Shown here piece by piece: positions 757 through 54,594 of a stretch of 64,000 nt of DNA. A program made the translations under genes and the position numbers. Within the stretch, counting starts at the first letter, position 1. Each line of letters begins with the position of its first letter. The notes below the pieces were generated by a model. It saw only the letters and a list, made by a program, of their open reading frames with translations, searched no databases and was not told where the DNA came from. Location: contig CAUYWD010000196.1 of the NCBI GenBank assembly GCA_963576735.1, forward strand, positions 62,001 to 126,000, read 5' to 3'. The stretch is from Bedellia somnulentella (taxonomy: Eukaryota; Arthropoda; Insecta; Lepidoptera; Bedelliidae).

Positions 757-834
757 GCCCCCCCCAGAATACGTGGGGGCGCCTCCCGCGGCCGCGGAAG
801 GGTGGGATTCCCCCTTTCGGGGACCCACCTGGGT
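757..834 (-). promoter_or_regulatory. ORF1 head RNA module, type B (S1, second copy)
   Basis: Read on the sense strand: P1 GGTGGG/CCCACC encloses P2 CCCC-GAAA-GGGG. Then comes P3 CTTCCGC-GGCC-GCGGGAG (one G-U pair), then P4 GCCCCC/GGGGGC. The fold lies entirely inside coding sequence. Confidence 0.7.
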
Positions 835-915
835 AGTTTTGTTCAAAATTGCCGAATCCATTGTTAGTTTTGTGAGAATAATTTTTGGGGAAAGATTTCC
901 CAGAAGATGGGTGTT

Positions 916-1003
916 GCCCCCCCCAGAATACGAGGGGCAGCCTGTACGGGATCGTACAGGGAGGGATTCTCCGCTGGCAGAGCCAGCGGTACCCTCCTGG
1001 GGT
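916..1003 (-). promoter_or_regulatory. ORF1 head RNA module, type A (S1, first copy)
   Basis: The layout is the same as type B, with different bases: P1 GGAGGG/CCCTCC, P2 CCGCTGGC-TCT-GCCAGCGG, P3 CTGTACG-ATCC-CGTACAG, P4 GCCCC/GGGGC. P2 and P3 are perfect helices. This is the only unit carrying two modules in tandem. Confidence 0.75.
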
Positions 1004-1466
1004 AAAACTTTGTTTTGACAGGCCATCATTTCATAATGTGGTAGGCAATTTTACCCTCGGCCTACCATCGAGCTATCCCCCCATACCCTGACGCTAGGCA
1101 CTGGATACCTACCAGCCATTCATCCCCTCGGCACGCCAACCTTGGGATTAGGGTAATTTTTTATAGAGGTTTTCTTCCTCGCAGCCCAGACCTCAGTGGC
1201 CTGAGCCCCCGTTCCCACCGAAGTAGGCTTACGGGTTGGCCGGCAGAATCATGAAGACACTGCCGCCCCTCCATCACCAGCCGCCCAATGTGGGTAGCTG
1301 GGACCGAACGCAAGACAGAACCTGGCCGACCGATACGACACAAACGCCAGGTTCTAACTTAACAACGACGCCTACTCGGTACATTGGCTTCACCCCGAGC
1401 TGGATTGCCCGAGGCTACTGAGCCCCCACGCCACGACAAGGCTGTACCATGTGGGGGATGTGGGGG

Positions 1467-1470
1467 AACC
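1467..1470. repeat. Telomeric remnant AACC between S1 and S2
   Basis: Only four bases of the TTAGG repeat separate the S1 5' end (GGGGG) from the S2 poly(T), in the same phase as the longer tracts. Confidence 0.8.
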
Positions 1471-1491
1471 TTTTTTTTTTTTTTTTTTTTT

Positions 1492-1884
1492 CGTGGGTAA
1501 ATCCTCATGGATCCGACGCCACCCGGTGGAGTGACGAAGGTATGTCGGACTCCTACCGACTAAAACCCCACGGTGACTCTTCACTGGTGCCTTATTGTAG
1601 GGTCCGTGGGCTTTCTAGACCATTGGCAATACGTACCACAGACCCTACGCACCTAACGCCGCAAGGCATCACTTCTCAGGGGGACTTCTGTTAGCCCCCT
1701 TTTCTTCCTGTCTTTTTGCAGCAGACGCTCAGAGTCACTTGAGCGCCTGCCCATCGCGGGCAAGTTGAGTCGACACACAAAGCCACCGATTTGCGTGCCC
1801 CCTGCCCTCGGAGCCCCGTCTTTGGCGGTGAACGCTCACGGGGCTCCTTGGTCTTGATTAAGACCATTCCATGCCGCGGGCATA
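1492..1884 (-). promoter_or_regulatory. S2 3' UTR, structured; terminal fold 1492-1572
   Basis: The terminal cloverleaf-like fold (sense) is closed by CGTGGG/CCCACG. Its arms are GTCGG/CCGAC, CGTCAC/GTGGCG (one G-U) and ATCC-ATGA-GGAT. Upstream hairpins read on the + strand are GGTGC/GCACC enclosing GGGTC/GACCC (about 1583-1650), a small GCC/GGC tetraloop, and GACGCTCA/TGAGCG (about 1725-1750). The poly(A) follows directly. Confidence 0.65.
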
Positions 1885-5010: not shown

Positions 5011-5012
5011 TA

Positions 5013-7142
5013 TTAATTAATTACCATGGGTTCCTCCGCGGGCCTTGGATTAACCGTGCCCTTATATCCAATATCCTTTCCTGATTTAGGCCGCTTCGTT
5101 TTACTCGCAAAGCAAGACTTAGCCCCAGTAATGTGCTCTGCCGGTTTTTCTGCTGCTTTGCATACCGGGCAGTTAGGCTTTGAGGCACATTCACTCACTC
5201 TATGATTGGGCAAACCGCAGCGGAAACAAAGATTGCTGCGATCGACAGTCGAAGTGCACTGTGCACGCACATGACCGGGCTCAAGGCATTTGTAGCACCG
5301 TAGTGCTCTCTTTGGAAGATGCTGAACCCGGGCTACGCCCCAACCAACTTGGATTTTTTTCAGCTGCAATAGCTTTTTTGCTACAGCAACTGAGCATCGC
5401 ACATGAGCGGAACATGCACCTCTCATTCCTTCATTAATTTGCCCTATTTTTACGTCAGCCGACGAGCAACCACCATTAAGGGCAACAGCAGCAGCAATTT
5501 CCTCTTGAGAGACTGAGTCGTCTAAGTCTACAAGGCGAATGTCCTCCAGCTTAGTTGGCCTGTACACTTTGATCAACTCAGAATCAAAGCATTCCCTCAG
5601 TTTTGAAGCCAGGACGTCAGCTTTTTCTGACGATCCTTCCCCAGAGACTTCAATCTTGCGGGCACCCGTGATTGCAGTTCTAATCCGCACTGACCCTATT
5701 CCGAGACCAGAAAGATTAAGCTTCTCCCTAGCTTCAGTCATCACCTTTTTATAGGTGATACCACTATCTGGGGCTGACTCATCGAGGTGGACAATCACCG
5801 CTGCTGAGCGAGGCACTCGCAGTTTTTTGACCGCTTTTGTCGCTTTACTCAATGCAGTCGCTTTCACTGTTGCATTGGTGTTTGGCGACTTCTTTTTTCC
5901 CCGGCGCACCACCGTTGCCCATGAATCCTCTTCCGCGGGTTTGGAGGGTCCAGGGGTTGGCTGTGTCGCTAGTAAAGGAGGCTCCGGGACACGGACAGCT
6001 GAGGTAACGCTAGCAGTATTGAGCGCTGCTGGTTTAGATTTTTTCCCCCTGCCCTTACCCTTACCCTGGCTTACTCGACTAGCATCTGCACCTTTTGCAG
6101 CAGCTGCAGTTTCCAGCTGCGGTTTGCTGACTGTGTTTGATTTGTTTTGTAGTCTGTCAGCAGCCAGCGGAGGTCTTAGTCGTTTCTCCGGTAAGAGACG
6201 ACCTTCTAACGCTTCTAGTCTGGCATTCAGCATGGTCCCTACTTGGACCATGATAGACCGAGCCAGATCATCGGTTGTTGGTACGGCTGGGTTTGAATTG
6301 GACCGAGCCATGTTAAACTCAGCCCTCATCTCAGCCATTTCCCTCCTCATGATGTCTAACTGACCAGCTAGGTTTTCCCTGTCCGCTCTTATACGTTGGT
6401 TCTCTTCTTGAAGCCTAGTTAGATCTTCTTGCAGCTTCTTCACTTCACCCGAAGAAGAACATTCTTTTAAGAGCTCAGAATTGGCTACTATATCCTCTGC
6501 CGCTTGTTTCAGATCTCTGACATAGGTACCTTTAAGGTTACCAGATTTCTTCGCGATTTTGAGTATGATGGCGGCCTTATCTTCCACCGTTTTAGCTAAC
6601 TCAGCAGCAGATTTTTTCCCAACAGGGATGACGGAAGCCTGGGATTTAGCTGATCGCGCGGCATATCGATCCACTCGATGAGTGAGATCTTCCTGCTCTG
6701 AGGTACTCTCCTCTTGCCGCATGAATTTTCGGCGAGCTGCAGCAGCCTCGGCTCTCGCTTTCCCAACGCCAATATACTCACCAGTAGTTGGTGGCCTGCC
6801 ACGCCCTCTTTTTGGATTAGCTATGGGTTCCAAGGTAGCCTCAGCACTTCCGTCTGAATCTGAGGCACTTAAACCACTGCCAGCACGTCGCTTTCTGTGT
6901 AGGTCCCACAGCCGGTTTTCACCATCCACAGTAATATATGAGCTCACACTCATATTTTCATCAGTGATATCAGAGTCCGATAATCGTTCGCATAGGTCAT
7001 TTGTTTTGTTTGGCAAAAGATGGGTGTTGTCCCCCCCAGAATACAAGGGACGGCCTACATCAAAAGATGTAGGGAGGGATTCTCCGCCGGCTGAGCCGAC
7101 GGTACCCTCCTGGGGTAATAACTTTCTGTTAGCACTCATCAT
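5013..7142 (-). CDS. S2 ORF1: gag-like RNA-binding protein (709 aa)
   Basis: The intact frame opens with ATGATG. The head is type A (LLPQEG .. YSGGGD), then KRGRGRPPTTGEYIGVGKAR, an AT-hook-like core followed by a conserved patch. A coiled-coil stretch (LTRLQEENQRIRADRENL region) precedes MVQVGTMLNARLEALEGRLL, present in every copy, and WATVVRRGKK in the middle. The C-terminus has three zinc knuckles: CYKCLEPGHVRAQC, CFRCGLPNHRVSEC and a looser CPVC..H..C. It ends MVIN, TAA, and a second in-frame TAA whose last base starts ORF2. The knuckles place it with R1-clade ORF1 proteins, which bind element RNA. AT-hook function is inferred from the RGRP core only. Confidence 0.9.
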   Translation of the reverse strand: MMSANRKLLPQEGTVGSAGGESLPTSFDVGRPLYSGGDNTHLLPNKTNDLCERLSDSDITDENMSVSSYITVDGENRLWDLHRKRRAGSGLSASDSDGSAEATLEPIANPKRGRGRPPTTGEYIGVGKARAEAAAARRKFMRQEESTSEQEDLTHRVDRYAARSAKSQASVIPVGKKSAAELAKTVEDKAAIILKIAKKSGNLKGTYVRDLKQAAEDIVANSELLKECSSSGEVKKLQEDLTRLQEENQRIRADRENLAGQLDIMRREMAEMRAEFNMARSNSNPAVPTTDDLARSIMVQVGTMLNARLEALEGRLLPEKRLRPPLAADRLQNKSNTVSKPQLETAAAAKGADASRVSQGKGKGRGKKSKPAALNTASVTSAVRVPEPPLLATQPTPGPSKPAEEDSWATVVRRGKKKSPNTNATVKATALSKATKAVKKLRVPRSAAVIVHLDESAPDSGITYKKVMTEAREKLNLSGLGIGSVRIRTAITGARKIEVSGEGSSEKADVLASKLRECFDSELIKVYRPTKLEDIRLVDLDDSVSQEEIAAAVALNGGCSSADVKIGQINEGMRGACSAHVRCSVAVAKKLLQLKKIQVGWGVARVQHLPKRALRCYKCLEPGHVRAQCTSTVDRSNLCFRCGLPNHRVSECASKPNCPVCKAAEKPAEHITGAKSCFASKTKRPKSGKDIGYKGTVNPRPAEEPMVIN
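7029..7117 (-). promoter_or_regulatory. ORF1 head RNA module, type A (S2)
   Basis: P1 GGAGGG/CCCTCC; P2 CCGTCGGC-TCA-GCCGGCGG (one G-U); P3 CTACATC-TTTT-GATGTAG; P4 GTCCC/GGGAC. Compared with the S1 type A copy, P2, P3 and P4 all differ in sequence yet still pair. Confidence 0.8.
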
Positions 7143-8099: not shown

Positions 8100-11000
8100 T
8101 CAGTGGTTCCTGGCACCGCGGCGACGACGGCCCCTTCCAGTGGGGTCCGCCAGCTCCCTTTCCCTTTCGGCGGCCTCCTTTGCAAGCATTACGTGTTCGC
8201 AAAAGGAGGCCACCGCCGCCCACGCTTCGGGGCTCCCCACCATGGCCGCAACTACGGCCGTCAGGGATAGATCCGGGCCAATGCTTGCCCGGAGTGCTGC
8301 CCTCTCCCCAGCCCAAGCTGGGCACTCTTCGAGAGTGTGTTTCGCCGAATCTTCGGGGCAATTCAGACAGTGGTGGCAACGAGCAGCCTGCTCTTTACCC
8401 AGCCGCCACAGGTACTTACCGAAGCAATCATGCCCGGAAAGGACCTGTGTCAGCCGGAAGCTCAGAGATCCATGCTCTCGCTGCAACCACTGCGTGAGGA
8501 CGGGGAGAATGGCCTCCACCGTCTTGTGCCCCGCGCTCGGCTGTCCCAGCCTGAGCGCCCATGCCTCGAGGGCAGCTGCCTCGACCTCCTGCTTGTAGGC
8601 CGCAGTCTCCCGTTGCGTGGGCCAGTGGCCCTGCGTCCGCCGATCTTCGCGCCAGTGGAAAGTGGACGCGAGGACTTTCGCGTCCAAATCCCATGGCATG
8701 GAACCCGCCAATAGGCAGGCAGCCTCTCGGGATACCGTACGGTATCCCCTTGACGCCCTGATGGACATAAGGCGCTGCGGCGCATGAAGAAGCGCCGCAT
8801 TAGCCCCGTTCAGGGCGTCTGCCCAAACTGGGGAGCCGTACATTGCCATTGATCGTACGACCCCCATATAGAGCTGCCTGCTTGCGTTCCTGGGGCCCCC
8901 AAGGTTCGGCATGAGTCTGCTAAGGGCAGCAGCCGCAACCATTAACCGGGGCCCCAAACGCTCGAAGTGAGCGCGGAACGTCCAACGGCCGTCGAGCACT
9001 AATCCCAGGTATTTCAAAGTCGACTCGACGGCAATCCTCACGCCACCCACGACGATGGCGGATTCTCCCACTGGCGGACGATTCCGAGGCCCATGAAACC
9101 ACATGGCCTCGGACTTATTCAGGGCCACTTCAAGGCCCAGAAGCCTTATGCGGCGCACAACGTGCGCCACTCCCGCTGTTGCGCGGATGGCGGCCTCCCT
9201 GTATGTTTTCCCTCGAGCCGTCACTAGGGTGTCGTCTGCATAGCAGGTGAGTTGGACACCCCAGAGGTTGGCGCCGCGCAGGACCCAATCGTAGCCGATG
9301 TTCCACAGGAGCGGACCTAAGACTGACCCCTGTGGCACACCGCATGACATAGCGCGGCTTTCCCACCCCTCCCGAACCGGGTAAGTAATAGAACGGTCCG
9401 AGAGGTACGACTCGAGGACCCTCAATATGTATGGAGGCACTACATGATACTTAAGTGCCTCTTTAATACAGGGCCAGGGCATGGTATTGAAGGCGTTGGC
9501 GATGTCAAGTGACACCGCCAAAACCACCTCGCCCTGTGCGACCGCCTCGTCCGCTATCGCGCGAACGCGCAACACCGCGTGTACCGTTGAACGGCATCGG
9601 CGGAATCCAAACTGCTGGTCCGATATGTTTGGGCCTACCTCATCAAGGTGCTCGACGATTCGGGCAGAGATCACCCTCTCGAAAAGTTTGCCCGCCTCGT
9701 CGAGCAGAACGATAGGCCGAAAAGACGATGGTTCGACGGAGTCAGCGGGGCGCCCTTCCTTTCGTAGGAGGACGAGTTTGCCCACCTTCCAAGGCTCTGG
9801 AAATACCCCTTGTGCCAGGCACAGGGAAAGCAGGCCCCGGAACTTCTCCTCCAGGAAGGGTTCCAGTGCGACCACCCAGGCTCGCCCCGGGATGCCGTCT
9901 AGTCCCGGGGCTGTCTTCTTCGCCTTGAGTCGCTTTATTGCCACTGCCAACTCCGGTTCAGTCACTTCTGGGACCAGCAGTTCTTCCTCCTCATGCTGCC
10001 GCTCTGCAGCCATCACTGGGGGCATATGAGCTGCCCTTGCCGGAAACAAGGCCGAGACCACGTTTTCCACTACGTGTGGCTGGAGACTCGTTGTCAAAGG
10101 GGGCGCCCAAGGGCGAAGCTGCTGCCGCACAACCTTGTACGGCCTGCCCCATGGGTCGTTGTTTAGAGTCTCCAGAGATTCCACCTTGGAGGCGAGTTTG
10201 ACCCTGAGAACAGCGATCTTCAGGGCTTTTTTCGCCTCACGGTACGCATCAACTATTTCTTGTTCCTCGGCCTCGATCCGGCGTCTTCTCCTTCGGTAGC
10301 GCTGACATCGGCGGCCAGCCGCCATGCTAGCTCGGCGGAGCTGAGCAACTTCGGCAGACCACCAGTGAACTTGTCTCCTTGGAGCCATTGGTCCCGCCCG
10401 GGGCATGGACGCGTCGCATATCTCTGTGAGGGCCCCACTAAACCAGGCCACCTCAGCCATGATGTCATTGGCAAAGTCAGGCGGTGCAGACCAGGACTGG
10501 ACAATGGCTGCTTCGGCCATTAGTTCTTTATCCAGCCTGCTGAGGGCCCATCTTGGGCCCCCGTTTGCCGATGAGCCGCCTGATGAGGTGGCTTCACGAG
10601 ACGTAGAGACATCAAACCGGATATATCGGTGGTCAGAGTATGTCTCCACGTCAGTGATGACCCTCCAGCCCTTAATTAGGGCCCAGAGACCGGGAGTAGC
10701 GAAAGTCAGATCGACGATCGAACTCCCGTTATGCCTAACACATGTGGGTGTCGAACCCGTGTTAGCGACAGCCATTCCAGTGGCCGTCGCCCATTCAACA
10801 ACGGCGTGTCCGAAAGGTTCCGTTGCCGGGGATCCCCAAACCACTGACTTAGCGTTAAAGTCCCCGGCAATCAAAACCTGCCGAGGACGGCGCTGAAGGA
10901 CTACTGCTTCTAGATCTTGCAGAAACACCTCGAAGTCGGAAAGTGGATCGTTAGCGGAGAAGTAGATTGACACTACGACAATTTCTCCGATGCGAGCCAC

Positions 11001-11228
11001 CACGAACCTCCGACCCCGGGTCACTTCTTCCAGCAGCAGTCCTGAAGATCTGCTGACCGTTATTGCAGCGACGCCGTAAAGATCCGACACCCAATTTACC
11101 CCATCGGGGACGAAATATGGCTCCGAGACCACTCCAATGTTTATTAACCACTCCGCCATGCTTTGAAAGAACAGGTCTTGGGCAGTGGCGCAGTGGTTAA
11201 GGTTCACCTGTAGGAACCGCATAGCCAT
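8100..11228 (-). CDS. S3 ORF2: endonuclease-reverse transcriptase (1042 aa), intact
   Basis: Endonuclease, residues about 1-230: LQVNLN near the start, SEPY near 35, GDFNAK near 123, NGSSIVDL, and YSDH near 199. Reverse transcriptase, about 400-720: GLDGIP near 441, SLDIANAFN near 572, GVPQGSVLGP, and YADD near 662. A C-terminal zinc knuckle (CHHCLNCPEDSAKH) lies near 948. All catalytic residues I can check are present. The ATG at 11228 is preferred over a GTG one codon upstream, because ATG overlaps the second of two in-frame ORF1 stops (TAG TGA TG). By analogy with SART1, ORF2 would be made by termination-reinitiation after ORF1. Its predicted job is to cut TTAGG repeats and copy element RNA into the break. 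Confidence 0.93.
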   Translation of the reverse strand: MAMRFLQVNLNHCATAQDLFFQSMAEWLINIGVVSEPYFVPDGVNWVSDLYGVAAITVSRSSGLLLEEVTRGRRFVVARIGEIVVVSIYFSANDPLSDFEVFLQDLEAVVLQRRPRQVLIAGDFNAKSVVWGSPATEPFGHAVVEWATATGMAVANTGSTPTCVRHNGSSIVDLTFATPGLWALIKGWRVITDVETYSDHRYIRFDVSTSREATSSGGSSANGGPRWALSRLDKELMAEAAIVQSWSAPPDFANDIMAEVAWFSGALTEICDASMPRAGPMAPRRQVHWWSAEVAQLRRASMAAGRRCQRYRRRRRRIEAEEQEIVDAYREAKKALKIAVLRVKLASKVESLETLNNDPWGRPYKVVRQQLRPWAPPLTTSLQPHVVENVVSALFPARAAHMPPVMAAERQHEEEELLVPEVTEPELAVAIKRLKAKKTAPGLDGIPGRAWVVALEPFLEEKFRGLLSLCLAQGVFPEPWKVGKLVLLRKEGRPADSVEPSSFRPIVLLDEAGKLFERVISARIVEHLDEVGPNISDQQFGFRRCRSTVHAVLRVRAIADEAVAQGEVVLAVSLDIANAFNTMPWPCIKEALKYHVVPPYILRVLESYLSDRSITYPVREGWESRAMSCGVPQGSVLGPLLWNIGYDWVLRGANLWGVQLTCYADDTLVTARGKTYREAAIRATAGVAHVVRRIRLLGLEVALNKSEAMWFHGPRNRPPVGESAIVVGGVRIAVESTLKYLGLVLDGRWTFRAHFERLGPRLMVAAAALSRLMPNLGGPRNASRQLYMGVVRSMAMYGSPVWADALNGANAALLHAPQRLMSIRASRGYRTVSREAACLLAGSMPWDLDAKVLASTFHWREDRRTQGHWPTQRETAAYKQEVEAAALEAWALRLGQPSAGHKTVEAILPVLTQWLQREHGSLSFRLTQVLSGHDCFGKYLWRLGKEQAARCHHCLNCPEDSAKHTLEECPAWAGERAALRASIGPDLSLTAVVAAMVGSPEAWAAVASFCEHVMLAKEAAERERELADPTGRGRRRRGARNH

Positions 11229-11230
11229 CA

Positions 11231-13372
11231 CTAACTTATGACCATGGGTTCCGCCTCAGATCTTTTATCGCCACCATTTCTTGGTAAGCGATTAGACTTG
11301 TCAGGGCTTTGGTACCCTGTTCCTGCTCTTGTCGTGCCTCCTCTCTTCTTTTTATTCGAAGAGCAGGCTTTTGCACCAACAGTATGATCCGCTGGCTTAT
11401 TGGCGGCTTTGCAAACGGGGCAGCTAGGTTTAGCCCCACATTCCCTAGCAATGTGGTCTGGCTGACCGCAACGGTAGCAAATGTTGCTACGGTCTATTTC
11501 CGACTTGCACTGCGCACGTACATGGCCAGGTTCGAGGCATTTATAGCAGCGTAGCTCTTTCTTTGAAAGAAGCTGCACCCTAGCCGTTCCGTAACCGATT
11601 TCTAGCGCCTTCAACTGCAATAGTTTCTTGGCAGTAACGGTTGGACACCTAATGTGAACAGAACACAATCCGCGTTGTCCTTCCGTTATCTGCCCCACCT
11701 TTAAGTCTGATGTGGAGCAATCAGCAGCAGTTGCAATGACGACTCTCATTTCTTCTACAGAGACTGAATCGTCTAGGCCGACAAGACGTAGGTCTTCCAG
11801 TTTTGATGGCCTAGAAATTTTCACCATACTGGCATCAAAAACTTCTCTTAATTTCGCCGCAAGAACGTCCGCCTTCTGAGAGGAGCTCTCACCACCAACC
11901 TCTAGTTTTCGAGCCCCAGTTAATGCTGTCCGCATACGCAAGGGCCCCATCCCTAAGCCTGGCAGGTCCAACTTTTGCCTTGCTTCAGTCATAATTTGTT
12001 TGTAAGTAAGACCAGACTCACAAGCTTGTTCTTGAAGCGTAACTATTACTGCTGAAGTACGAGGGACTCTTAGCTTCTTTGATGCCGCTTTGTTTTTGGT
12101 CGGCTGACGGTCTTTCGCTGGAACATCCTTTGTGGACCGCTTCTTGCCCCGCCGGACCACAGTCGCCCAGGACTCTACTGCGTCCCCTGAAGAAGGGCCG
12201 GGAACAGGTTGCAAATCCGCAGCTCGAGGACCCAAAGGTTGGGCTACTTCTTGTAGGCTCACTTCTGGTGAGGATACTTTAGCAGTTTTCTTACCCTGGC
12301 CTTTGCCCTTGGCCTTTTCCGCCGTTTTTTGTTGGTTCCCTTTAGCTACAGATATACCCTTTCTTTGTGGTGCAGCGTTTGCTACCAGCTTTGGGGTTAC
12401 TCCATCTGCAGCCAACGGTGGGCGAATCCGTTTTTCTGGAAGGAGACGGCCTTCCAGTGCCTCAAGTCTGGCGTTAACCATGGTTCCTACTTGAACCATG
12501 ATTGCACGAGCTAAGTTTTCATCTGGCGAGGATGTTTTCTCCGAGGATGAGCTAATGCCGCTAATCTTTACCCTCATTTCCGCCAATTCCATCCGCAGAG
12601 CATCCATTTGGCTAGCTAAGCTAGCGTTATCGGCTTTTATCCTTTGATTTTCCTCCTTTTGCCGGGAGAGCTCTTCCTGCAACTTTATAACTTCATCAGA
12701 AGATGAACACTCCTTGAGAAGTTCATTATGATGCAGAATTTTTTCCGCCGCATTCTTAAGGTCCCTTACAAAAGTACCTTTTAAATTTCCCGATCTCTTG
12801 GCTACTTCCAGTATTTTCGAGACCCCCTCTTCGACAGTCTGAGCTAATTCTGCAGCCGAATTTTTCGCACTTAGGGCTGTCGAGGCCTGCGTTTTTTCTT
12901 TCCGAGCTGCATTACGGTTGGCTCGCTGGCTTATATCCTCCTGTTCCGTTACTATCTGCTCTTGCCGTAAGAACTGATTTCGCGCTGCTTTTGCATCAGC
13001 CCTTGCCTTGCCAACGCCTATGTATTGACCTGTGGAAGGAGGTCTTCCACGGCCTTTTTTCGGTGGTACTGTGCTACCAGCAAAGGAAGTTTCGACACTG
13101 CCATCGGAGTCTGAGACACTCAGTCCGCTCCCAGCTCGTCGCTTTCTTAGAAGATCGAAGAAGCTATTCGAGCTACCTGCAGTCTTCATTGATGAATCGC
13201 TCATCCCCTCATCACTAAAATCGGAATCCGTTAATCGTTTGCTTTGGTCGTTGGTTTGGAAGTTTTTGCCCCCCCCAGAATACGCGGGGGCGCCTTCCGC
13301 GGAAGCGGAAGGGTGGGATTCCCCCTTTCGGGGACCCACCTGGGTAATACTCTTCAAAATTTCCTTATTCAT
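11231..13372 (-). CDS. S3 ORF1: gag-like RNA-binding protein (713 aa), intact
   Basis: The ATG at 13372 lies a few bases after the GGTAGGC/GCCTACC hairpin. A type B head occupies residues about 9-37. The AT-hook-like KKGRGRPP is near 105-112, followed by STGQYIGVGKAR. A coiled coil lies at about 220-270 (EVIKLQEELSRQKEENQRIK). MVQVGTMVNARLEALEGRLL is near 293-312. Three zinc knuckles run from about 607 to 670 (CYKCLEPGHVRAQC, CYRCGQPDHIAREC, CPVC..H..C). The stretches around KRGRGRPP and between coiled coil and knuckles are rich in K and S. Similar knuckle trios occur in TRAS and SART ORF1. The ORF ends TAG then TGA. Confidence 0.92.
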   Translation of the reverse strand: MNKEILKSITQVGPRKGESHPSASAEGAPAYSGGGKNFQTNDQSKRLTDSDFSDEGMSDSSMKTAGSSNSFFDLLRKRRAGSGLSVSDSDGSVETSFAGSTVPPKKGRGRPPSTGQYIGVGKARADAKAARNQFLRQEQIVTEQEDISQRANRNAARKEKTQASTALSAKNSAAELAQTVEEGVSKILEVAKRSGNLKGTFVRDLKNAAEKILHHNELLKECSSSDEVIKLQEELSRQKEENQRIKADNASLASQMDALRMELAEMRVKISGISSSSEKTSSPDENLARAIMVQVGTMVNARLEALEGRLLPEKRIRPPLAADGVTPKLVANAAPQRKGISVAKGNQQKTAEKAKGKGQGKKTAKVSSPEVSLQEVAQPLGPRAADLQPVPGPSSGDAVESWATVVRRGKKRSTKDVPAKDRQPTKNKAASKKLRVPRTSAVIVTLQEQACESGLTYKQIMTEARQKLDLPGLGMGPLRMRTALTGARKLEVGGESSSQKADVLAAKLREVFDASMVKISRPSKLEDLRLVGLDDSVSVEEMRVVIATAADCSTSDLKVGQITEGQRGLCSVHIRCPTVTAKKLLQLKALEIGYGTARVQLLSKKELRCYKCLEPGHVRAQCKSEIDRSNICYRCGQPDHIARECGAKPSCPVCKAANKPADHTVGAKACSSNKKKRGGTTRAGTGYQSPDKSNRLPRNGGDKRSEAEPMVIS
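13268..13345 (-). promoter_or_regulatory. ORF1 head RNA module, type B (S3)
   Basis: P1 GGTGGG/CCCACC; P2 CCCC-GAAA-GGGG (a GNRA loop); P3 CTTCCGC-TTCC-GCGGAAG, a perfect 7-bp helix; P4 GCCCCC/GGGGGC. Confidence 0.78.
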
Positions 13373-13860
13373 ATTAGTTTTTGGTAGGCTTTACCCTCGG
13401 CCTACCAGCGAGCTTAACCCCCCCATCCCCTGCGCTAGGCACTGGACCCCCTCCAGACACTCATCCCCTCGGCACGCTGACCTTGGGATTAGGGTAATTT
13501 TTTATAGAGGTTTTCTTCCTCGCAGCCCAGACCTCAGTGGCCTGAGCCCCCGTTCCCACCGAAGTAGACTTACGGTTTGGCCGGCAGTATCATGAAGACA
13601 CTGCCGCCCCACAAAGACAGAACCTGGCCGACCGATGCGACACAGACGCCAGGTTCTAACACCCGCCCCAGCCGCCCAATGTGGACAAACGCTGGGGCTA
13701 AGCCGTGCACATCAGAATGTGCCACGACTTCCCGTCCGCTTACTGCTCGCTCTGGAAGCAGAGGAGAGAAGCGGACTTTTGGTACATTAGCTTCACCCCG
13801 GACTGGATTGCCCGAGGCTACTGAGCCCCCACGCCACGACAAGGCTGTACCGTGTGGGGG

Positions 13861-20880: not shown

Positions 20881-22106
20881 GTTACTGGGAGGGATTTATT
20901 GGTGACAGTTGACCCACTACCTTTCCCTTTTCCCTTGCCTTTCCCCTTTCCTTTACTGACTTCCGCTGCAGGTGCAGTTGCATCTGCAAGTACGGTAGGT
21001 ACTGTATTATGTGGCGTACTCAGAGGCCTTTTGTCCGCTGCCAGCGGCGGGCGTATGATCTTTCTAGGTAGAAGGCGTTCCTCTAATGCCTCCAGTCGAG
21101 CGTTCATCATGCTACCTACTTGTACCATGACAGAGCGGATAAAATCCTCGCTTCCTATAGTCTCAGGGTTCAGTCGCTGGCCCCTAATTTCCTCTCTTAG
21201 AGCAACCAGTTCAGAGCGTAAAGAAGCTTGTTCCTGATCGTGGAATTCTCTAATATTTTTGAGTTCGTCTCTGAGTCGTGTGTTATCTTCTTGAAGCTTT
21301 TTAACTTCTTCAGAAGACGTTCTTGCTAACAGAGCCTCTGATGCATTGTTTATTGATTTAGCAGCATTCTGAAGGTCTCTAACGAATGTACCCTTTAGAT
21401 TCCTTGACCTATTTGCCACACCAAGAATTACATCTATTTCTCTTTTAACTATTTTTGCCAGGTCTTCAGCGATTTTATCCCCAGCTGGTGTTTCGTCAAT
21501 GACTGCTTTTGGCCGAGTTCTTTCTCTCCTCTGATTAGACTTTTCCAATTTGTTTGACATGTCCTCTTTTTCTTTTTGTTGGCGGAGAAGAAAATCTTCT
21601 CTCCTAGCTGCTGCTTGCTCGGCCCTAGCTCTGCCAACACCGATAAATTTACCGGTAGTAGGTGGCCTCCCTCTACCTCTTTTAGAAAGGGTACTACCAG
21701 GCACAGTGTCCCTACTGGTGTCTGAATCTGATGGACCAGATTCTTCACCATCTCTTGCTCGCTTTCTGCGTTCGGAGTTACTCCAAAAACTTTTTGAAGT
21801 AAGGTCTCTGCAACTAAGAGAGTTGGAATCCTCAGACTCAGCTCCAGCAAAATCATTTCCAGAAGCCAAATCTACGTCCTCTATGCTTCCCATATAGGGA
21901 AAGTCCATATTACTATTAAGATCGAAGTCCGTGATGGATAAGCTATGGTCGTCGTTTAGACGCAGGCCCTTTGAAGAAGGACCTGCGAGGCAGTTTTTGC
22001 CCCCCCCAGAATACGTGGGGGCGCCTTCCGCGGATGCAGAAGGGTGGGATTCCCCCTCTCGGGGACCCACCTGGGTAACTCTATTCAAAATTGCCTTATT
22101 GTTCAT
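20823..22106 (-). pseudogene. S5 ORF1, C-terminally truncated (about 427 aa)
   Basis: The start is the ATG at 22106 (MNNKAILNR), which aligns with other units; the frame upstream of it is 5' UTR. It has a type B head, KRGRGRPPTTGKFIGVGRAR, a coiled coil (LQEDNTRLRDELKNIREFHD), MVQVGSMMNARLEALEERLL and a KGKGKGKGKG run. It then slips out of frame near 20870 and ends in an unrelated tail. Zinc knuckles are absent. Confidence 0.85.
21999..22076 (-). promoter_or_regulatory. ORF1 head RNA module, type B (S5)
   Basis: P2 has a GAGA loop; P3 is CTTCTGC-ATCC-GCGGAAG with one G-U pair; P1 and P4 are as in S3. Confidence 0.72.
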
Positions 22107-35410: not shown

Positions 35411-35488
35411 GCCCCCCCCAGAATACGCGGGGGCGCCTTCCGCAGAAGCGGAAGGGTGGGATTCCCCCTTTCGGGGACCCACCTGGGT
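35411..35488 (-). promoter_or_regulatory. ORF1 head RNA module, type B (S7)
   Basis: It is identical in layout to S3. The P3 loop is TTCT rather than TTCC (CTTCCGC-TTCT-GCGGAAG), and the helix is kept. Confidence 0.75.
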
Positions 35489-36003
35489 AATACTCTTCAA
35501 AATTTCCTTATTCATATTAGTTTTTGGTAGGCTTTACCCTCGGCCTACCAGCGAGCTTAACCCCCCCATCCCCTGCGCTAGGCACTGGACCCCCTCCAGA
35601 CACTCATCCCATCGGCACGCTGACCTTGGGATTAGGGTAATTTTTTATAGAGGTTTTCTTCCTCGCAGCCCAGACCTCAGTGGCCTGAGCCCCCGTTCCC
35701 ACCGAAGTAGACTTACGGTTTGGCCGGCAGTATCATGAAGACACTGCCGCCCCACAAAGACAGAACCTGGCCGACCGATGCGACACAGACGCCAGGTTCT
35801 AACACCCGCCCCAGCCGCCCAATGTGGACAAACGCTGGGGCTAAGCCGTGCACATCAGAATGTGCCACGACTTCCCGTCCGCTTACTGCTCGCTCTGGAA
35901 GCAGAGGAGAGAAGCGGACTTTTGGTACATTAGCTTCACCCCGGACTGGATTGCCCGAGGCTACTGAGCCCCCACGCCACGACAAGGCTGTACCGTGTGG
36001 GGG

Positions 36004-42789: not shown

Positions 42790-44958
42790 TTAATTGACGA
42801 CCATTGGTTCCTCCTGAGCTCCTTGCACATTTATAGTCGGCATTGAGCGGCCTACTTCTATAGGCACCTTCTTCTTTTCGGGATTAGGTTTTTTACCTTT
42901 CCTTCTTTTGTTAGTAGCAGAACAACTTTTCGCCCCAACTATGTGGTCTGCTGGTTTGTTTTCCCCTTTACAAACTGGACAACATGGCTTGTTGTTGCAG
43001 TTTACTACTTTGTGGTCAGGTGAACCACAACGGAAGCATAGATTGCCACGGTCCACTTCTTCTTTGCATTGGGCCCGCACGTGGCCAGCTCCAAGGCATT
43101 TGAAACATCGCAGTTCTCTTTGGGGAAGATGCTGCACACGAGGCCAGCTCCAACCAACTTGTATGGAACCCATCTGGAGGAGCTTCTTAGCCGTAACCAC
43201 TGGGCATATGACAACTGAAGTGGAAAGGCCTCGAGGACCACTAACAATTTTACCAACTTTCAAGTCCTCTGGCTTACAATCGCCGGCACTTGCAACAGCT
43301 AGGGTTGCCTCCTCTATGGTCACAGAGTCATCTAGACCAACAAGCCGAATGGCTTCCGTTTTTGTTGGTCTTGAAACTTTCACCAAGCCTGGAGGAAGCA
43401 CTTCTCTCAACTTCTCAGCCAAGGTATTTGCCTTGGTAGAAGCTTGTTCCCCAGAGGTTTCGATCATTCGGGCTCCTGTTAGTGCGGATCGCATTCTCAG
43501 GGGCCCGATTTCTAATCTTGACAGGTTTATATGCGACTTGGCATCACCTATCACACCTTTGTAGGTTAGTCCTTCCTTTAGGGCCTCTTCGCTGATGCTT
43601 ATTACGACTGCTGCAGATCGTGGTGGCTTCAGTTTCTGGCCAGCAGTTTTCGCCGTCTTTGCTTTTTGGGGTCTAGCAGTGATTTCTACTTTTTTACCCT
43701 TGTTTTTATTTTTTCCCTTCCTAACAACCGTCGCCCATGTCTCAGCTGTGCTTGGTGTTGTTGAAGCGCCAGGTATGGGCTCCATATCGTTTGACTGCGG
43801 GATGTTTGAAGAATTCGTCTCAGATTGGGTAGTCTTACTCTTTTTCCCCTTGCCTTTTCCTTTGGCTGTCAACCTCTCAAGGGTGGATTTGGCTGTAGGA
43901 GCAAAGTTTTCCACCAATCTCAGACTACTTTGAGCTTTATTTGCCCTTTTGTCTGCAGCCAGTGGTGGCCTCAGTCGTTTTTCCGGAAGAAGCCTCCCCT
44001 CTAAAGCTTCTAACCGTGCATTTACCATGGTCCCCACCTGGACCATTATTGATTGAGTCAGAATTTCGCCGACTTCTAGGCTTGGAGCGCTTCCGCCACT
44101 TCTGACTTCTGCCCGGAGGGCGTCCAACTCCTTTCTGAGGGCTATTTGTTCAAGGTGGAGACCCTCGTTGTTTTCTTTCAAAAGCTGCAATTCCTTCTTG
44201 AGGCGAGAGTTTTCAGCTTGCAACTTCATCGATTCAATCGATGAGGTCCGCTCCGACAGAGCCTCAGAAGACTCCTTGATCGAGGTAGTGGCATTCTTAA
44301 CGGCTTTAATCAAAGTACCTTTAAGTGCCTTCGACTTTTGTGCTACGTCTAATATAACTGACAGTTGGTGTTGCACATTTTCAAGTAGATCTTCTGCCGT
44401 CTTTTCAGAGGCAGGTATACCTGCAATAGCAGTCTCTGCCGCCTTTTCCCTCTTTTTCTGCTCTTGCCGATTATATCGCTCCATTCTCTGCGTAATATCT
44501 TCTTCCTGTTGCAGGAGAAAATATTCTTTTTTGGCAGCAGCAGCTTCCTGACGTGCTCGGCCTACACCAATATATTGGCCAGTTGTTGGAGGCCGACCAC
44601 GACCTCTCTTGGCGGGAGCTTTTTCAGAAGTTGGTGACTTCCGTTTGTCCTTCTCTGCTTCTGAGTCTGATGTTGCTGACTCAGATCCGTCATAAATTCT
44701 CTTACGCTGGGAACCCGAAGGTGATCCGACAAAGAAAGAGCCAATATTGTCCACCGTAGAGGTATATGAGTTGTCACTCGACTCTACGGCTGTGTCGCTT
44801 AAATCAAAATCCATGGTAATATCGCAAGTTTCGTTGGTTTGGCATTTTTTGCCCCCCCCAGAATACGTGGGGGCGCCTCCCGCGGCCGCGGAAGGGTGGG
44901 ATTCCCCCTTGCGGGGACCCACCTGGGTAGATCTATTTAAAAGTGCCGTGTTATCCAT
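42790..44958 (-). CDS. S10 ORF1: gag-like RNA-binding protein (722 aa), intact
   Basis: Intact frame with type B head, KRGRGRPPTTGQYIGVGRAR, a coiled coil (LQAENSRLKKELQLLKENNE), MVQVGTMVNARLEALEGRLL, KGKGKGKKSK, WATVVRKGKNKNKGKK, and knuckles CFKCLGAGHVRAQC, CFRCGSPDHKVVNC and CPVC..H..C. It ends MVVN, TAA. The next in-frame codon is CAA, not the second stop seen in S2, S3 and S6, yet ORF2 still starts at the same distance. Confidence 0.92.
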   Translation of the reverse strand: MDNTALLNRSTQVGPRKGESHPSAAAGGAPTYSGGGKKCQTNETCDITMDFDLSDTAVESSDNSYTSTVDNIGSFFVGSPSGSQRKRIYDGSESATSDSEAEKDKRKSPTSEKAPAKRGRGRPPTTGQYIGVGRARQEAAAAKKEYFLLQQEEDITQRMERYNRQEQKKREKAAETAIAGIPASEKTAEDLLENVQHQLSVILDVAQKSKALKGTLIKAVKNATTSIKESSEALSERTSSIESMKLQAENSRLKKELQLLKENNEGLHLEQIALRKELDALRAEVRSGGSAPSLEVGEILTQSIMVQVGTMVNARLEALEGRLLPEKRLRPPLAADKRANKAQSSLRLVENFAPTAKSTLERLTAKGKGKGKKSKTTQSETNSSNIPQSNDMEPIPGASTTPSTAETWATVVRKGKNKNKGKKVEITARPQKAKTAKTAGQKLKPPRSAAVVISISEEALKEGLTYKGVIGDAKSHINLSRLEIGPLRMRSALTGARMIETSGEQASTKANTLAEKLREVLPPGLVKVSRPTKTEAIRLVGLDDSVTIEEATLAVASAGDCKPEDLKVGKIVSGPRGLSTSVVICPVVTAKKLLQMGSIQVGWSWPRVQHLPQRELRCFKCLGAGHVRAQCKEEVDRGNLCFRCGSPDHKVVNCNNKPCCPVCKGENKPADHIVGAKSCSATNKRRKGKKPNPEKKKVPIEVGRSMPTINVQGAQEEPMVVN
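44851..44928 (-). promoter_or_regulatory. ORF1 head RNA module, type B (S10)
   Basis: The P2 loop is GCAA, a third GNRA form beside GAAA and GAGA. P3 is CTTCCGC-GGCC-GCGGGAG with one G-U pair. Confidence 0.75.
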
Positions 44959-48788: not shown

Positions 48789-48802
48789 AACCTAACCTAA
48801 CC
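48789..48802. repeat. Telomeric repeat, 2.8 units
   Basis: AACCTAACCTAACC lies between S12 and S13. Confidence 0.9.
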
Positions 48803-48821
48803 TTTTTTTTTTTTTTTTTTT

Positions 48822-52200: not shown

Positions 52201-52340
52201 ACCCAGTTTGCCCCAGTAGGGACATAATAGGGCTCCGAGACTATTCCAATGTCAATTGACCACTGTGCAAGGCTCTGAAGGAATAGATCCTGACCACAAG
52301 CACAGTGGTTCAAATTTCCCTGAAGAAACCGCATTGCCAT
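49212..52340 (-). CDS. S13 ORF2: endonuclease-reverse transcriptase (1042 aa), intact
   Basis: The ATG at 52340 shares its A with the ORF1 stop (TAATG), the exact UAAUG junction described for Bombyx SART1. The endonuclease has LQGNLN, SEPY, GDFNAK, SIVDL and YSDH; the RT has GLDGIP, SLDIKNAFN, GVPQGSVLGP and YADD; the knuckle is CHHCAVCPEDTAQH. Subfamily marks include HCACGQDLFLQSL and YLSNRQITYP. The sequence looks functional, but partner ORF1 in this copy is not. Confidence 0.93.
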   Translation of the reverse strand: MAMRFLQGNLNHCACGQDLFLQSLAQWSIDIGIVSEPYYVPTGANWVSDLDNVAAIYISRAAGLQISEVTQGHGFVKALVGEEVIVSVYFSPNRPLAEFEVLLEELEAVVLRSRPRRVLVAGDFNAKSVAWGSPVADANSFGDAAVEWMTATGLAVANKGSTPTCVRRKGSSIVDLTFATPELWALIKGWRVITDVETYSDHRYIRFEVSTARQAASSRGSSSNGKPRWALKKLDRELMTEAAIVQSWLAGPGRAADLSDEVTWFRDALTEICDASMPRAGPTVPRRQVYWWNAEVAQLRVACIAAKRQYTRHRRRRHRNEAEEKRLYDVFKEAKWALKDSVFRAKIASKQELLETLNDDPWGRPYRMARQRLRLRAPPLTSSLQPEVVENVVSVLFPVREEFAAPVMGGYIAAAKVEEVVPEVTEPELAVAVKRLQAKKTAPGLDGIPGQAWVVALKPFLADRLCNLFSMCLERGVFPEPWRAGKLVLLRKEVRPADSLEPSAFRPIVLLDEVGKLLERIVSSRIVGHLEETGPNLSDQQFGFRGCRSAVDAVQCVRNIADQAVSQGEVVLATSLDIKNAFNTLPYSCIREALIYHQVPPYLREILETYLSNRQITYPVREGWYRREVTCGVPQGSVLGPLLWNIGYDWVLRGANHWGVKVVCYADDTLVTARGKTFREAAIRATAGVAQVVHRIKLLGLEVALNKSEAMWFHGPRNRPPVDSAIVVGGVRIAVETTLHYLGLILDGRWTFRAHFERLGPRLIVAAAALCKLLPNLGGPRSGCRQLYAGVVRSMAMYGAPIWADTLDGPNAALLHAPQRLMAIRVSRGYRTVSREAACLMAGSMPWDLDAKVLASTFHLRKERRAQGHWPTQTETAAYRLEVQAVALEAWALRLAVPSAGHRTVEAILPVFEQWLQRGHGALSFRLTQILTGHGCFGRYLWRLGREQSARCHHCAVCPEDTAQHTLEVCPAWSGERAILQAEIGPDLSLGAVVAAMVDRSSAWAAVASFCETVMLAKEAAEREREIADPARRRVRRRGVRH

Positions 52341-54594
52341 TATTGAGTAACGTCAATGGGCTCCCCCTCTTCCATTGGCTCACTAGTTTGTGTTAGTGAG
52401 CGCGTTGGTTTAGCCTGGGCCTGTGATTTGCCACCAGCTTTCTTTCGATGCCTCGTCTTATTGCATGACTTAGCCCCTATTCGGTGATCTGCTGGTTTAT
52501 TGTCAGCAGAGCAAAGGAGACAATGGGGTTTGTCTGAGCATTCACGTGCCTTATGACCGGCTCCACCACAGCGATAACATAGCTCACTATGATTGGAACT
52601 TGATTGGCATGCTGCGCGGACGTGTCCAGGCTCCAAGCACTGGAAGCACCTTAGCTCTCTTTGAGGTAGCAGCTGTACTCGGGCCAGACTCCAACCAATC
52701 TGAACCTCACCCACTTGGTTTAGCTTTTTCAGAGCTTCGGCTGGACATCGAACCCAAGCTGTTCCACGGCCTCTTGGCCCATCCCGTATTTGGCCAACCT
52801 TGACGTCCCCAGGTGAGTATCCTCCTGCAGCTGCTACAGCAGCAGCAATTTCTTGGGGCGATAAAGAGTCATCAAGCCCAATAAGGCGCATATCGGCAGC
52901 CTTAATTGGCCTAGAAACTTTAACTTCTGGCGGCAAAACTTGCCGTAGTTTCACAGCAAGGGCCTCAGCTTTCACCTTAGCCTCGGGTCCAGAAAGTTCA
53001 ATCAGCCTAGCCCCAGTAATAGCTTTACGGGAGCGAATTTGATTAATTCCCATTTCTGAAAGATCCGCTATTTGCCTGGCTTTGGTCATCACGTCTGAGT
53101 AATTAAAGCCTTTGGCCTCAGCTCCTTCTACCAGGGAAACGCTCACAGCCGCAAAACGTGGAACCCGAATGGTAGGCTTTTTCTTCTTCTTATGATTCGG
53201 GTTTCCAGTGAGGGCTTTTGTTGGGACTGCTGCGTTGGCTTTCCCATTCCTTTTCACTACTGTAGCCCAGGTATCTTTGTCTGGGGCAGACGAAGGCCCA
53301 GGCTGGGGCTGTTCATGAGGGCGGGTCACACTCTCAGAAACCACCATTCTATTATTTGGTGAGGTAAGGGGCTTAAGTGGCGCGGATTTAGGGACCGACT
53401 TTTTCCCCTTCCCTTTGCCCTTAGTTTGGCTACCCAGAGATGTTGAGACCGAGTTTCCTACCGCCAAAGAAGAAGTTTGGGATGACTTCTTTGTCACAGC
53501 ATCCGAGGCAAGCGGAGGCCAGATACGTTGTGGTGGCAAAAGCCTTTCTTCGAGTGCTTCGAGCCTAGCATTCATCATAGTTCCCACTTGAACCATGATA
53601 GAGCGCGCCAGATCATCACTGCTAAGGGCAGTTGTGTTGGCGTTAGAGCGGACGCTCATGACCTCCGCTTTAACTTCCACCAGCTCGCGACGTAGATTAT
53701 CCAACTCGGAAGCTAAGGTTTGCTTATCAGACGTCGCTTTTTTATTCTCCTCTTTCAGCCGACTGATTTCTTCACGAAGAGCGACCACTTCCTTAGAGGA
53801 TGACCACTCTTGGAGCATTTCTGTGTATCTAGTTATTTCTTCCGCAGCATTCCTTAAGTCCCTTACGTAGGTGCCTTTAAGGTTGCTAGACTTTTTGTCG
53901 CACGCTCTTTAACTATTTGGGCTAGCTCTGCCGCAGATTTGGCTTCTATAGGAGTTGGTGAAGACCGTTTCCGGGATCTACAGGCAGTGCCCCTCACCAT
54001 TTTAGGATTTGGAGTGTCCTGCTGACTGCCTGATTCCTCATCTCGCAGGAATTTCTTCCTGGCCGCAGCAGCATCCGCTCTGGCCTTTCCTACTCCTATA
54101 TACTGACCCGTAGATGGAGGTCTACCGCGGCCTCTCTTCGACGAGGTTTGGCTTGCGAGAGTTGCAAAGCTCACGTCGGAATCAGAAGTGCTCTCATCAT
54201 TTGCAGCAGGGCGCTTCCTTTGTAGTTCCAGTAAACTGGATTAGCTACCTGCTGTCACGAGTGATGAAAAGCGTTCGTTACCATCACTTTCCATATCCAT
54301 GGGTCCACATTCATCGTTGTCGGGGTTTATTACCCGATCATCGAATTTATTTCTATGGGAATCAACTGGGATTCCCAAAGAGATTCTACATTCTCTGATG
54401 GCTGACGTTTGCAGAGAGCCATCACTATTCGTTGCGCTTATAACTGAGTCCGTAAGAGTAAAGCATTGGTCGTTGGATTGGCTGTTTTTGCCCCCCCCAG
54501 AATACGTGGGGGCGCCTTCCACGGCCGTGGAAGGGTGGGATTCCCCCTCTCGGGGACCCACCTGGGTAATTCTATTAAAACTAGCCTTTTTCAT
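52340..54594 (-). pseudogene. S13 ORF1, broken by one stop and one deletion
   Basis: The start ATG at 54594 (MKKASFNRI) leads a type B head. A TAA ends the frame at 54241-54243 after SLVTAGS. The same frame resumes with KRGRGRPPSTGQYIGVGKAR to about 53890, where about 22 nt are missing around the LKGTYVRDLR block and the frame shifts. The rest (to 52340) is normal: coiled coil, MVQVGTMMNARLEALEERLL, WATVVKRNGK, CFQCLEPGHVRAAC, CYRCGGAGHKAREC and CLLC..H..C. It ends DVTQ TAA. Confidence 0.88.
54490..54567 (-). promoter_or_regulatory. ORF1 head RNA module, type B (S13)
   Basis: P3 is CTTCCAC-GGCC-GTGGAAG: both partners of one base pair differ from S3 (GC to AC with GC to GT) and the helix stays perfect. 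The P2 loop is GAGA. Confidence 0.8.

What the first reader, a model, noticed from the sequence alone, without database searches (positions are those of the whole stretch)
757..54567. Covarying RNA fold built into the first codons of ORF1
Eight modules (757, 916, 7029, 13268, 21999, 35411, 44851, 54490) fold alike: P1 enclosing P2, then P3, then P4. P1 is GGTGGG/CCCACC or GGAGGG/CCCTCC. P3 is CTTCCGC/GCGGAAG, CTTCCAC/GTGGAAG, CTACATC/GATGTAG or CTGTACG/CGTACAG, always with a 4-nt loop. P4 is GCCCC/GGGGC or GTCCC/GGGAC. Type B P2 loops are GAAA, GAGA or GCAA, all GNRA. The encoded peptide differs between types A and B while the fold is kept, so selection seems to act on RNA.
Basis: seen in the sequence. 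Interest (0 to 1): 0.87.

Follow-up and report, generated by a model that had tools for sequence, protein, structure and literature searches.

The report
Start-codon RNA pseudoknot shared by LINEs
Several different families of jumping genes in this (likely moth or butterfly) genome carry the same RNA element, predicted to fold as a pseudoknot, about 25-32 letters after the start codon of their first gene, where it likely tells the ribosome which start codon to use.

Summary
In detail: all eight modules are there, on the minus strand, in the first codons of ORF1 of SART-like telomeric LINEs. CCC(C)AG, just 5' of P1, can pair with CUGGG(G), just 5' of the P4 3' strand, giving a predicted pseudoknot whose P0 and P4 fill one 11-nt strand (38 of 39 modules with an 11-nt strand, of 46).

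The genome holds 735 pattern matches, the control 2. Over 46 distinct modules the fold is kept with strong covariation (95.7% of cells paired; score 0.417 vs 0.118 shuffled), also above a home-made phylogenetic null. In the 15 of 40 database ORF1s that carry the signature, two residues facing each other in P1 always fit a sense/antisense codon pair. Selection on RNA is well supported.

New here: the module also opens DUF4780-type ORF1s of LINEs with EN+RT+RNase H, and it starts +25 to +32 from the AUG in 61 of 64 copies, while the 13 leaders measured (264-503 nt) hold 3-9 AUG triplets. Best mechanism (untested): start-codon selection by a downstream roadblock, as in the alphavirus DLP. Main rival: a retrotransposition signal like the R2Bm 5' RNA.

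The parts
757..833 (-). RNA module, GGUGGG type (second module of the dual-module ORF1). P0a 833-830, P1a 829-824, P2 822-819/814-811, P1b 806-801, P3 800-794/789-783, P4a 780-775, P0b 766-763, P4b 762-757 (P0 predicted); AUG 861-859
916..1002 (-). RNA module, GGAGGG type; P2 8 bp, P3 CUGUACG/CGUACAG, P4 GCCCC/GGGGC, predicted P0 CCCCA/UGGGG; AUGs at 1029 and 1026
7029..7115 (-). RNA module, GGAGGG type; P3 CUACAUC/GAUGUAG, P4 GUCCC/GGGAC, predicted P0 CCCCA/UGGGG; AUGs at 7142 and 7139
13268..13344 (-). RNA module, GGUGGG type, start of an open ORF1; AUG at 13372
21999..22075 (-). RNA module, GGUGGG type; nearest AUG at 22106
35411..35487 (-). RNA module, GGUGGG type, in an ORF1 that meets a poly-T run about 55 nt downstream; AUG at 35515
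44851..44927 (-). RNA module, GGUGGG type with GCAA loop; AUG at 44958
54490..54566 (-). RNA module, GGUGGG type; P3 CUUCCAC/GUGGAAG; AUG at 54594
5013..7142 (-). ORF1 (709 aa, zinc knuckles) that begins with module 7029
11231..13372 (-). ORF1 (713 aa, zinc knuckles) that begins with module 13268
42790..44958 (-). ORF1 (722 aa, zinc knuckle) that begins with module 44851
8100..11231 (-). ORF2 of the same SART-like element (endonuclease + reverse transcriptase), downstream partner of ORF1 11231-13372

Best explanation
A 77-93-nt RNA element, predicted to fold as a pseudoknot, is encoded 25-32 nt after the ORF1 start codon of two groups of LINEs in this (likely lepidopteran) genome, and it likely works as a roadblock that parks the scanning ribosome on the right AUG of a leader with many upstream AUGs. 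Shown by sequence: the covariation of P1, P2 and P3, the changes on both strands of P4, the distance to the AUG, the A-rich spacer, the upstream AUGs and the presence in two ORF1 types. Predicted: P0 and hence the pseudoknot. P0a sits directly against P1a, P1b directly against P3, and P0b directly against P4b, so that P0 and P4 would stack as one helix with P1-P2 and P3 as two hairpins inside the P0 loop. Inferred: a pre-initiation complex with its P site on the AUG meets this compact fold just ahead, pauses and initiates there; an elongating 80S ribosome then melts and passes it. Also inferred: the cassette AUG + spacer + module has been passed between LINE groups, probably by template switching during reverse transcription.
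For: RNA selection: 95.7% of 1074 cells paired over 46 distinct modules; covariation score 0.417 vs 0.118 (shuffles) and at most 0.089 (slid). In a home-made phylogenetic null the summed score is 179 vs at most 46 in 100 runs, and 5 of 23 proposed pairs (one in P1, four in P3) pass E<0.05. Synonymous recodings fold worse on average in 12 of 12 families. Other species: 15 of the 40 database ORF1s carry the N-terminal signature, and in 15 of 15 the P1 residues fit complementary codons. Over all 17 regex rows, 16 fit vs 5.5 permuted, and 0 of 100,000 shuffles reach 16. Pseudoknot arithmetic: 39 of 46 modules have an 11-nt 3' strand, and in 38 of 39 it is filled by P4a+P0a plus the C opposite the contested G. 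Start-codon link: the module starts at +25/+28/+29/+32 in 61 of 64 copies and at +25 to +31 from the nearest Met codon in the 15 database proteins. The leaders measured vary in length (13 copies, 264-503 nt, 3-9 AUG triplets), so what is fixed is the distance to the AUG, not to the RNA 5' end. The spacer is 46% A. Precedent: the alphavirus hairpin lies 27 nt downstream of the AUG and signals the start codon (PMC5850377, passages); downstream hairpins direct AUG choice in plants and human cells (PMC10499604, abstract and passages).
Against: No translation, probing or retrotransposition data exist here. P0 does not vary in sequence, so it rests on complementarity and strand arithmetic alone, and single-sequence folding does not favour it: in 6 of 7 MFEs P4 slides along or extends into the G run that P0 needs. 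P4's varying pairs do not pass the phylogenetic null (E 0.19 and 0.79), and only one pair passes when all column pairs at least 4 apart are tested. Two weaker measures are less extreme (pairs changed on both sides 16 vs 12.9, 4 of 500 shuffles reach it; further pair types 48 vs 43.5, 17 of 500). A conserved distance to the AUG could be inherited if the AUG-module cassette travels as a unit. The alphavirus hairpin serves eIF2-independent initiation in mammalian cells, and the cited review disputes the simple roadblock model for it (Kozak's optimum is 14 nt). Twenty-five of the 40 database ORF1s lack the signature (several are partial); three of them (P0003, P0005, P0033) look like diverged versions, were not scored by the regex, and P0033 (A facing A) would not fit.
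Confidence: 0.5

Rival explanations
1. The module is a retrotransposition signal: ORF1p or ORF2p binds it to mark the element's own RNA for packaging, or to steer second-strand cleavage, as is reported for the 5' RNA at the start of the R2Bm ORF.
For: Closest precedent in place and build: the R2Bm 5' RNA lies at the 5' end of the ORF, contains a conserved pseudoknot and is reported to take part in regulating integration (PMC12203849 section 12). The module is kept across two element groups with conserved unpaired letters (GAAU before P1b, GUAUU before CUGGG).
Against: The two groups have ORF1 proteins that match only in about the first 45 residues and ORF2s 23-25% identical, yet similar modules (SART-B1 vs MAQ 92-95% over 61 columns), so one protein-specific signal is hard to keep. 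In the Bombyx SART1 trans assay the donor RNA carries the 3' UTR and poly(A) without the ORF1 start (PMC7265360, passages; whether SART1Bm carries the module is not known here). It does not explain why the distance to the AUG is fixed.
Confidence: 0.27
2. Selection acts on the N-terminal peptide (QxG...GES...YSGGG) and the RNA fold is a by-product.
For: 35 of 46 distinct modules are read in one frame over the 3' part and the Q, G, ES and SGG residues recur across species.
Against: Covariation with amino-acid change, synonymous recoding, residue pairs that fit sense/antisense codons across species, and two families (GGCGGG: 5 of 5 distinct modules; L037 and L053) in which the same RNA letters encode RILGG instead of YSGGG (the other 4 of the 11 off-frame modules are probably decayed copies).
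Confidence: 0.04
3. The module is part of an internal ribosome entry site that recruits the ribosome directly, so it acts upstream of scanning.
For: The 13 leaders measured are 264-503 nt with 3-9 AUG triplets, which a scanning ribosome would have to pass; pseudoknots are common in viral IRESs (general knowledge).
Against: The module lies downstream of the AUG, and the printed leaders of SART, MAQ1/2 (related to each other), MAQ3 and MSF elements look different by eye while the module is shared (no cross-family leader alignment was run).
Confidence: 0.12
4. The module is a self-cleaving ribozyme.
For: R2 elements carry HDV-like ribozymes at their 5' end (PMC3774820, passages), and this is a compact fold with conserved loops.
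Against: No Rfam ribozyme matches. The strand order is not that of the HDV fold (HDV order recalled). Cleavage at or in the module would cut the ORF1 AUG from its ORF.
Confidence: 0.03

Closest known systems
R2Bm 5' RNA (conserved pseudoknot at the start of the R2 ORF)
   Same: Structured, pseudoknotted RNA at the 5' end of a LINE ORF in Lepidoptera; a role in translation initiation was suggested and one in regulating integration reported (review section read; primary papers not held).
   Different: Host elements here have an N-terminal APE-type endonuclease and two ORFs. No Rfam match was found. The detailed folds could not be compared with these tools.
Alphavirus downstream loop / downstream stable hairpin (DLP/DSH)
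   Same: Stable RNA fold in the coding region starting 27 nt after the AUG (25-32 nt here), said to signal the start codon (passages).
   Different: A hairpin in an RNA virus, tied to eIF2-independent initiation in mammalian cells; here two hairpins inside a predicted pseudoknot in LINEs.
uAUG-ds / mAUG-ds downstream hairpins (plants, human cells)
   Same: Structure downstream of an AUG is presumed to slow the pre-initiation complex and selects that AUG (abstract and passages).
   Different: Presented there as generic double-stranded structure, not one RNA family; here one specific fold is conserved and shared by two element groups.
HDV-like ribozymes of R2
   Same: Compact pseudoknot near the 5' end of LINE RNA (passages).
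   Different: Different strand order, inside the ORF, no Rfam match.

Membership tests
[quoted passage not shown]
   In 7 of 7 leaders in the window GGTT is followed by CCCCCAC after poly(A) or TTAGG; 22 overlapping matches to (CCTAA)4 in the window; the SART1Bm rule is from PMC7265360 passages
SART family of telomere-specific R1-clade LINEs (host element of the window modules) | Two ORFs: RNA-binding ORF1 with zinc knuckles, ORF2 with AP-like endonuclease and RT | tested here: met
   Six proteins scanned; best solved-structure hit of one ORF2 is 1wdu, TRAS1 ORF2p, E=1.6e-13
SART family of telomere-specific R1-clade LINEs (host element of the window modules) | RT phylogeny inside the R1 clade, with SART elements | not tested
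   no RT tree was built
R2 5' RNA / R2 5' pseudoknot | Lies at the start of an R2 ORF | tested here: not met
   ORF2 of the host elements has an N-terminal APE-type endonuclease
R2 5' RNA / R2 5' pseudoknot | Same fold and sequence as the silkmoth R2 pseudoknot | not testable with these tools
   Primary papers not held; Rfam scans silent, but it is not known here whether a model of the 5' pseudoknot is in Rfam
Alphavirus DLP-type downstream start-codon hairpin | Stable structure starting about 27 nt downstream of the AUG | tested here: met
   +25/+28/+29/+32 in 61 of 64 copies; 27 nt in PMC5850377
Alphavirus DLP-type downstream start-codon hairpin | Single hairpin | tested here: not met
   Two hairpins plus P4 and predicted P0
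Alphavirus DLP-type downstream start-codon hairpin | Initiation at the marked AUG depends on it | not testable with these tools
   needs reporters or toeprinting
HDV-like ribozyme | P1a-P2a-P3-P1b-P4-P2b double pseudoknot (order recalled) | tested here: not met
   Observed order P0a-P1-P2-P3-P4a-P0b-P4b; no Rfam match at the gathering score or among three weak hits

The most novel reading that the evidence does not exclude
A start-codon cassette (AUG, A-rich spacer, pseudoknot) is itself a mobile part: it is traded between LINE clades of Lepidoptera by template switching and installs one common way of commanding the ribosome on unrelated ORF1s, so that selection on one RNA helix is written into protein sequence as sense/antisense codon pairs.
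Probability: 0.4. Interest if true: 0.88.

Novelty: new variant of a known kind. Interest (0 to 1): 0.74.

Why it matters
How ORF1 of two-ORF insect LINEs is translated from long leaders with many upstream AUGs is, to my knowledge, open. A conserved fold locked at about 28 nt from the AUG makes that directly testable with small reporters in insect cells. It matches no family of Rfam 15, it could mark element starts for annotation in Lepidoptera, and its exchange between groups with unrelated ORF1s would show that LINEs trade regulatory RNA parts. The E-L/V-H/A-R pairs are a clear case of RNA pairing visible in protein sequences.

Tried and rejected
Chance hits set aside: one IMG/VR locus (L009) is a phage-type peptidase-like gene, and five GTDB pattern hits show no module by eye. 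A second viral contigs pattern found nothing. So no DNA from other lepidopteran genomes was obtained; cross-species evidence rests on proteins only.

A 5'UTR kissing idea (loop AGGGTAA of the hairpin just before the AUG with TTACCC about 125 nt upstream) fails in some window copies (loops of A54490 and A21999 differ without a matching partner change) and is left open. A search by the first 45 residues of P0019 found only itself among 17 candidates. Literature searches for the module or a pseudoknot in ORF1 of R1-type, SART/TRAS or lepidopteran LINEs gave nothing on point in their listings (DUF4780; downstream hairpins); most subscription papers are not held.

Limits of the statistics. The alignment for searches was made by a script anchored on P1b, the GC after P3 and GUAUU, and leaves out P2; 46 modules gave 31 unique rows. 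The tree for the null came from the same 61 columns, with 100 simulations. Only one pair passes when all column pairs at least 4 apart are tested; five pass among the 23 proposed. In one search the counted pairs were chosen on the natural sequence, so its pair counts are biased and only the folding energies are a fair test. Alignment A6 was fitted to the structure of model R2, from 44 sources that I picked (redundant loci left out). Loci left out before parsing: L009 and L042 (not modules). The 46 distinct modules come from the window and 61 scanned loci, drawn mainly from about the first hundred of 735 places, so rarer families are missed. In one search the identities count gaps as mismatches and leave out most of P2.
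Full report
What is in the window. The window holds a telomeric array of LINEs on the minus strand, with poly(A) and (CCTAA)n between elements. ORF1 has zinc knuckles, ORF2 an APE-type endonuclease and RT, and the best solved relative of one ORF2 is TRAS1 ORF2p (1wdu). In 7 of 7 leaders GGTT is followed by CCCCCAC, i.e. insertion between T and A of TTAGG, the SART1Bm rule (PMC7265360, passages). The genome is 549 Mb in 486 contigs.

The observation. All eight modules are present on the minus strand. In the seven that were folded, P1, P2 and P3 form as described; P4 forms in all seven but is slid along the G run in four and extended in two. CCCAG (or CCCCAG) directly 5' of P1 is complementary to CUGGG (or CUGGGG) directly 5' of the P4 3' strand. 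P0 and P4 cross, so this would be a pseudoknot. The 3' strand is 11 nt in 39 of 46 distinct modules, and in 38 of these 39 it is filled by P4a plus P0a: six-letter P4 with three C in P0 (18 modules), five-letter P4 with four C (20 modules); one copy, L024, has a C-A mismatch. P4 also changes on both strands: GCCCC/GGGGC, GUCCC/GGGAC, GCUCC/GGAGC, GUCCCC/GGGGAC. P0 letters themselves never vary, so P0 has no letter covariation, and nested folding prefers a longer or slid P4; P0 remains a prediction.

Genome-wide. The pattern CCCAG-N45..75-ATTCTGGGGG has 735 matches against 2 for the reversed pattern. From the window and 61 loci I took 46 distinct modules. Model R2, built only from modules 916 and 7029, finds 53 places in the 44 sources given, the weakest at E=1.3e-7. 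On that alignment (46 distinct rows) 95.7% of cells pair, 205 cells are changed on both sides (shuffles 70), the covariation score is 0.417 (shuffles 0.118), and sliding the partner by 1-3 columns gives at most 0.089; two weaker measures are less extreme (16 pairs vs 12.9, 4 of 500 shuffles; 48 types vs 43.5, 17 of 500). P1's central pair is A-U 26, U-A 14, C-G 5, A-A 1; the five inner P3 pairs show 4-6 pair types each. Against a home-made null that evolves columns independently on the module tree, the summed score is 179 versus mean 4.5 and at most 46 in 100 runs; five of 23 proposed pairs (P1 centre and four of P3) pass E<0.05, the varying P4 pairs do not (0.19, 0.79), and one pair passes when all column pairs are tested.

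RNA, not peptide. All window modules are read in the same frame and share QxG, GES and SGG, so a peptide explanation had to be tested. Random synonymous recoding of 12 family peptides gives mean energies about 10-20 kcal/mol worse in 12 of 12, and at most 3% of 300 recodings fold as well. Families GGCGGG (5 of 5 distinct modules) and L037/L053 read the same RNA letters CGUAUUCUGGGG in another frame (RILGG instead of YSGGG). Of the other 39 modules 35 share the main frame and 4 do not, probably decayed copies. In the public protein set, 17 of 40 ORF1 homologues match the regex; two (P0015, P0040) are spurious by position, leaving 15. In all 15 the residue after PQ (PR in P0036) and the residue after GES can be encoded by codons that pair in the P1 register: E-L, V-H, A-R, G-S, T-R. 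Over all 17 rows 16 fit, against 5.5 expected on shuffling (0 of 100,000 reach 16); taking the five combinations once each, 2 of 120 permutations fit. Three diverged N-termini (P0003, P0005, P0033) were not scored, and P0033 would not fit. The species named among the 15 are Papilio machaon, Loxostege sticticalis, Hyposmocoma kahamanoa, Dendrolimus kikuchii, Aricia agestis and Colias eurytheme; eight of the 15 proteins come from unnamed sources.

Two kinds of LINE, one module. Interior copies carry the module in front of a different ORF1; two of them (L024, L025) were scanned and hold DUF4780, and the ORF2s downstream of both hold EN, RT and RNase H. The two ORF1 types share only about the first 45 residues, i.e. 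the module (L025 and P0002 match somewhat further), and the ORF2s are about 23-25% identical over their main alignment. Similarity of modules does not follow element type: over 61 columns SART-B1/B2/B3 modules are 84-95% identical to those of the DUF4780-type elements MAQ1-3 but 72-74% to SART-A, although SART-A and -B2 ORF1s are 55% identical over their length. The three-C design also occurs in L037 and GGCGGG elements, whose ORF1 kinship to the MAQ type rests on a short match of L037 only (28 residues, E=6e-6). The 757/916 element looks like a chimera: a B-type leader and module joined to an A-type start with its own in-frame AUG; eight further copies with 96-100% identity over both modules exist in the genome. 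Exchange by template switching is the inference.

Link to the start codon. In 61 of 64 distinct copies the module begins at +25 (13), +28 (21), +29 (12) or +32 (15) from the nearest in-frame AUG; three copies have none. In the 15 database proteins it begins at +25 to +31 from the nearest Met codon. The spacer is 46% A and 10% C. Leaders are 433-503 nt in seven window elements and 264-270 nt in six copies of two interior families, with 3-9 AUG triplets. What is fixed is therefore the distance to the AUG, not to the RNA 5' end.

How it most likely works. The best parallel is the alphavirus hairpin 27 nt after the AUG, which signals the start codon (PMC5850377, passages), and the finding that hairpins after an AUG presumably slow and engage the scanning complex (PMC10499604, abstract and passages). 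I infer that the module pauses the scanning ribosome on the ORF1 AUG. The review argues against a purely mechanical model for the virus hairpin, and nothing here was tested at the bench. The main rival is a retrotransposition signal like the R2Bm 5' RNA, which also sits at the ORF start, has a conserved pseudoknot, is reported to regulate integration and was itself suggested to matter for translation initiation (PMC12203849 section 12). Against it: one module serves two groups with different ORF1s, the AUG spacing is fixed, and in the SART1Bm trans assay the donor RNA carries the 3' UTR and poly(A) without the ORF1 start (PMC7265360, passages).

Novelty. No Rfam family matches and no paper in the listings describes it by title or abstract, with the limit that most subscription papers are not held. 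I rate it a new variant of a known kind: a structured RNA at the start of a LINE ORF, with its own fold, a start-codon-locked position and spread across element groups.

Noticed in passing
window 757-1029 (-): One ORF1 holds two modules in series (B type then A type), each after its own in-frame AUG; eight further copies of this arrangement (96-100% identity) exist elsewhere in the genome.
   Followed up: partly
window, just upstream of each ORF1 AUG, e.g. 13383-13406 (-): A hairpin GGTAGGC...GCCTACC whose loop (GAGGGTAA) is complementary to TTACCC about 125 nt upstream; the match is not kept in copies A21999 and A54490.
   Followed up: partly
L022, L024, L026 (MAQ1/MAQ2 elements): P3 of the MAQ1 and MAQ2 families has a single internal mismatch (C-U or A-G) at the same position, as if two variants of one pair had recombined.
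   Followed up: no
L003, L035, L041, L043, L044, L061: The G run of P0b/P4b is longer than usual (9-14 G) in some copies, as expected of slippage; some of these change the ORF1 frame.
   Followed up: no
L034, L035: Copies with an intact module but ORF1 breaking off after about 100 or 80 codons; possible internally deleted, non-autonomous forms.
   Followed up: no
window 59304-59379 (-): tRNA-like gene found by Rfam (50.6 bits) and by ARAGORN with a four-base anticodon (cgta); possibly a tRNA-derived repeat.
   Followed up: no
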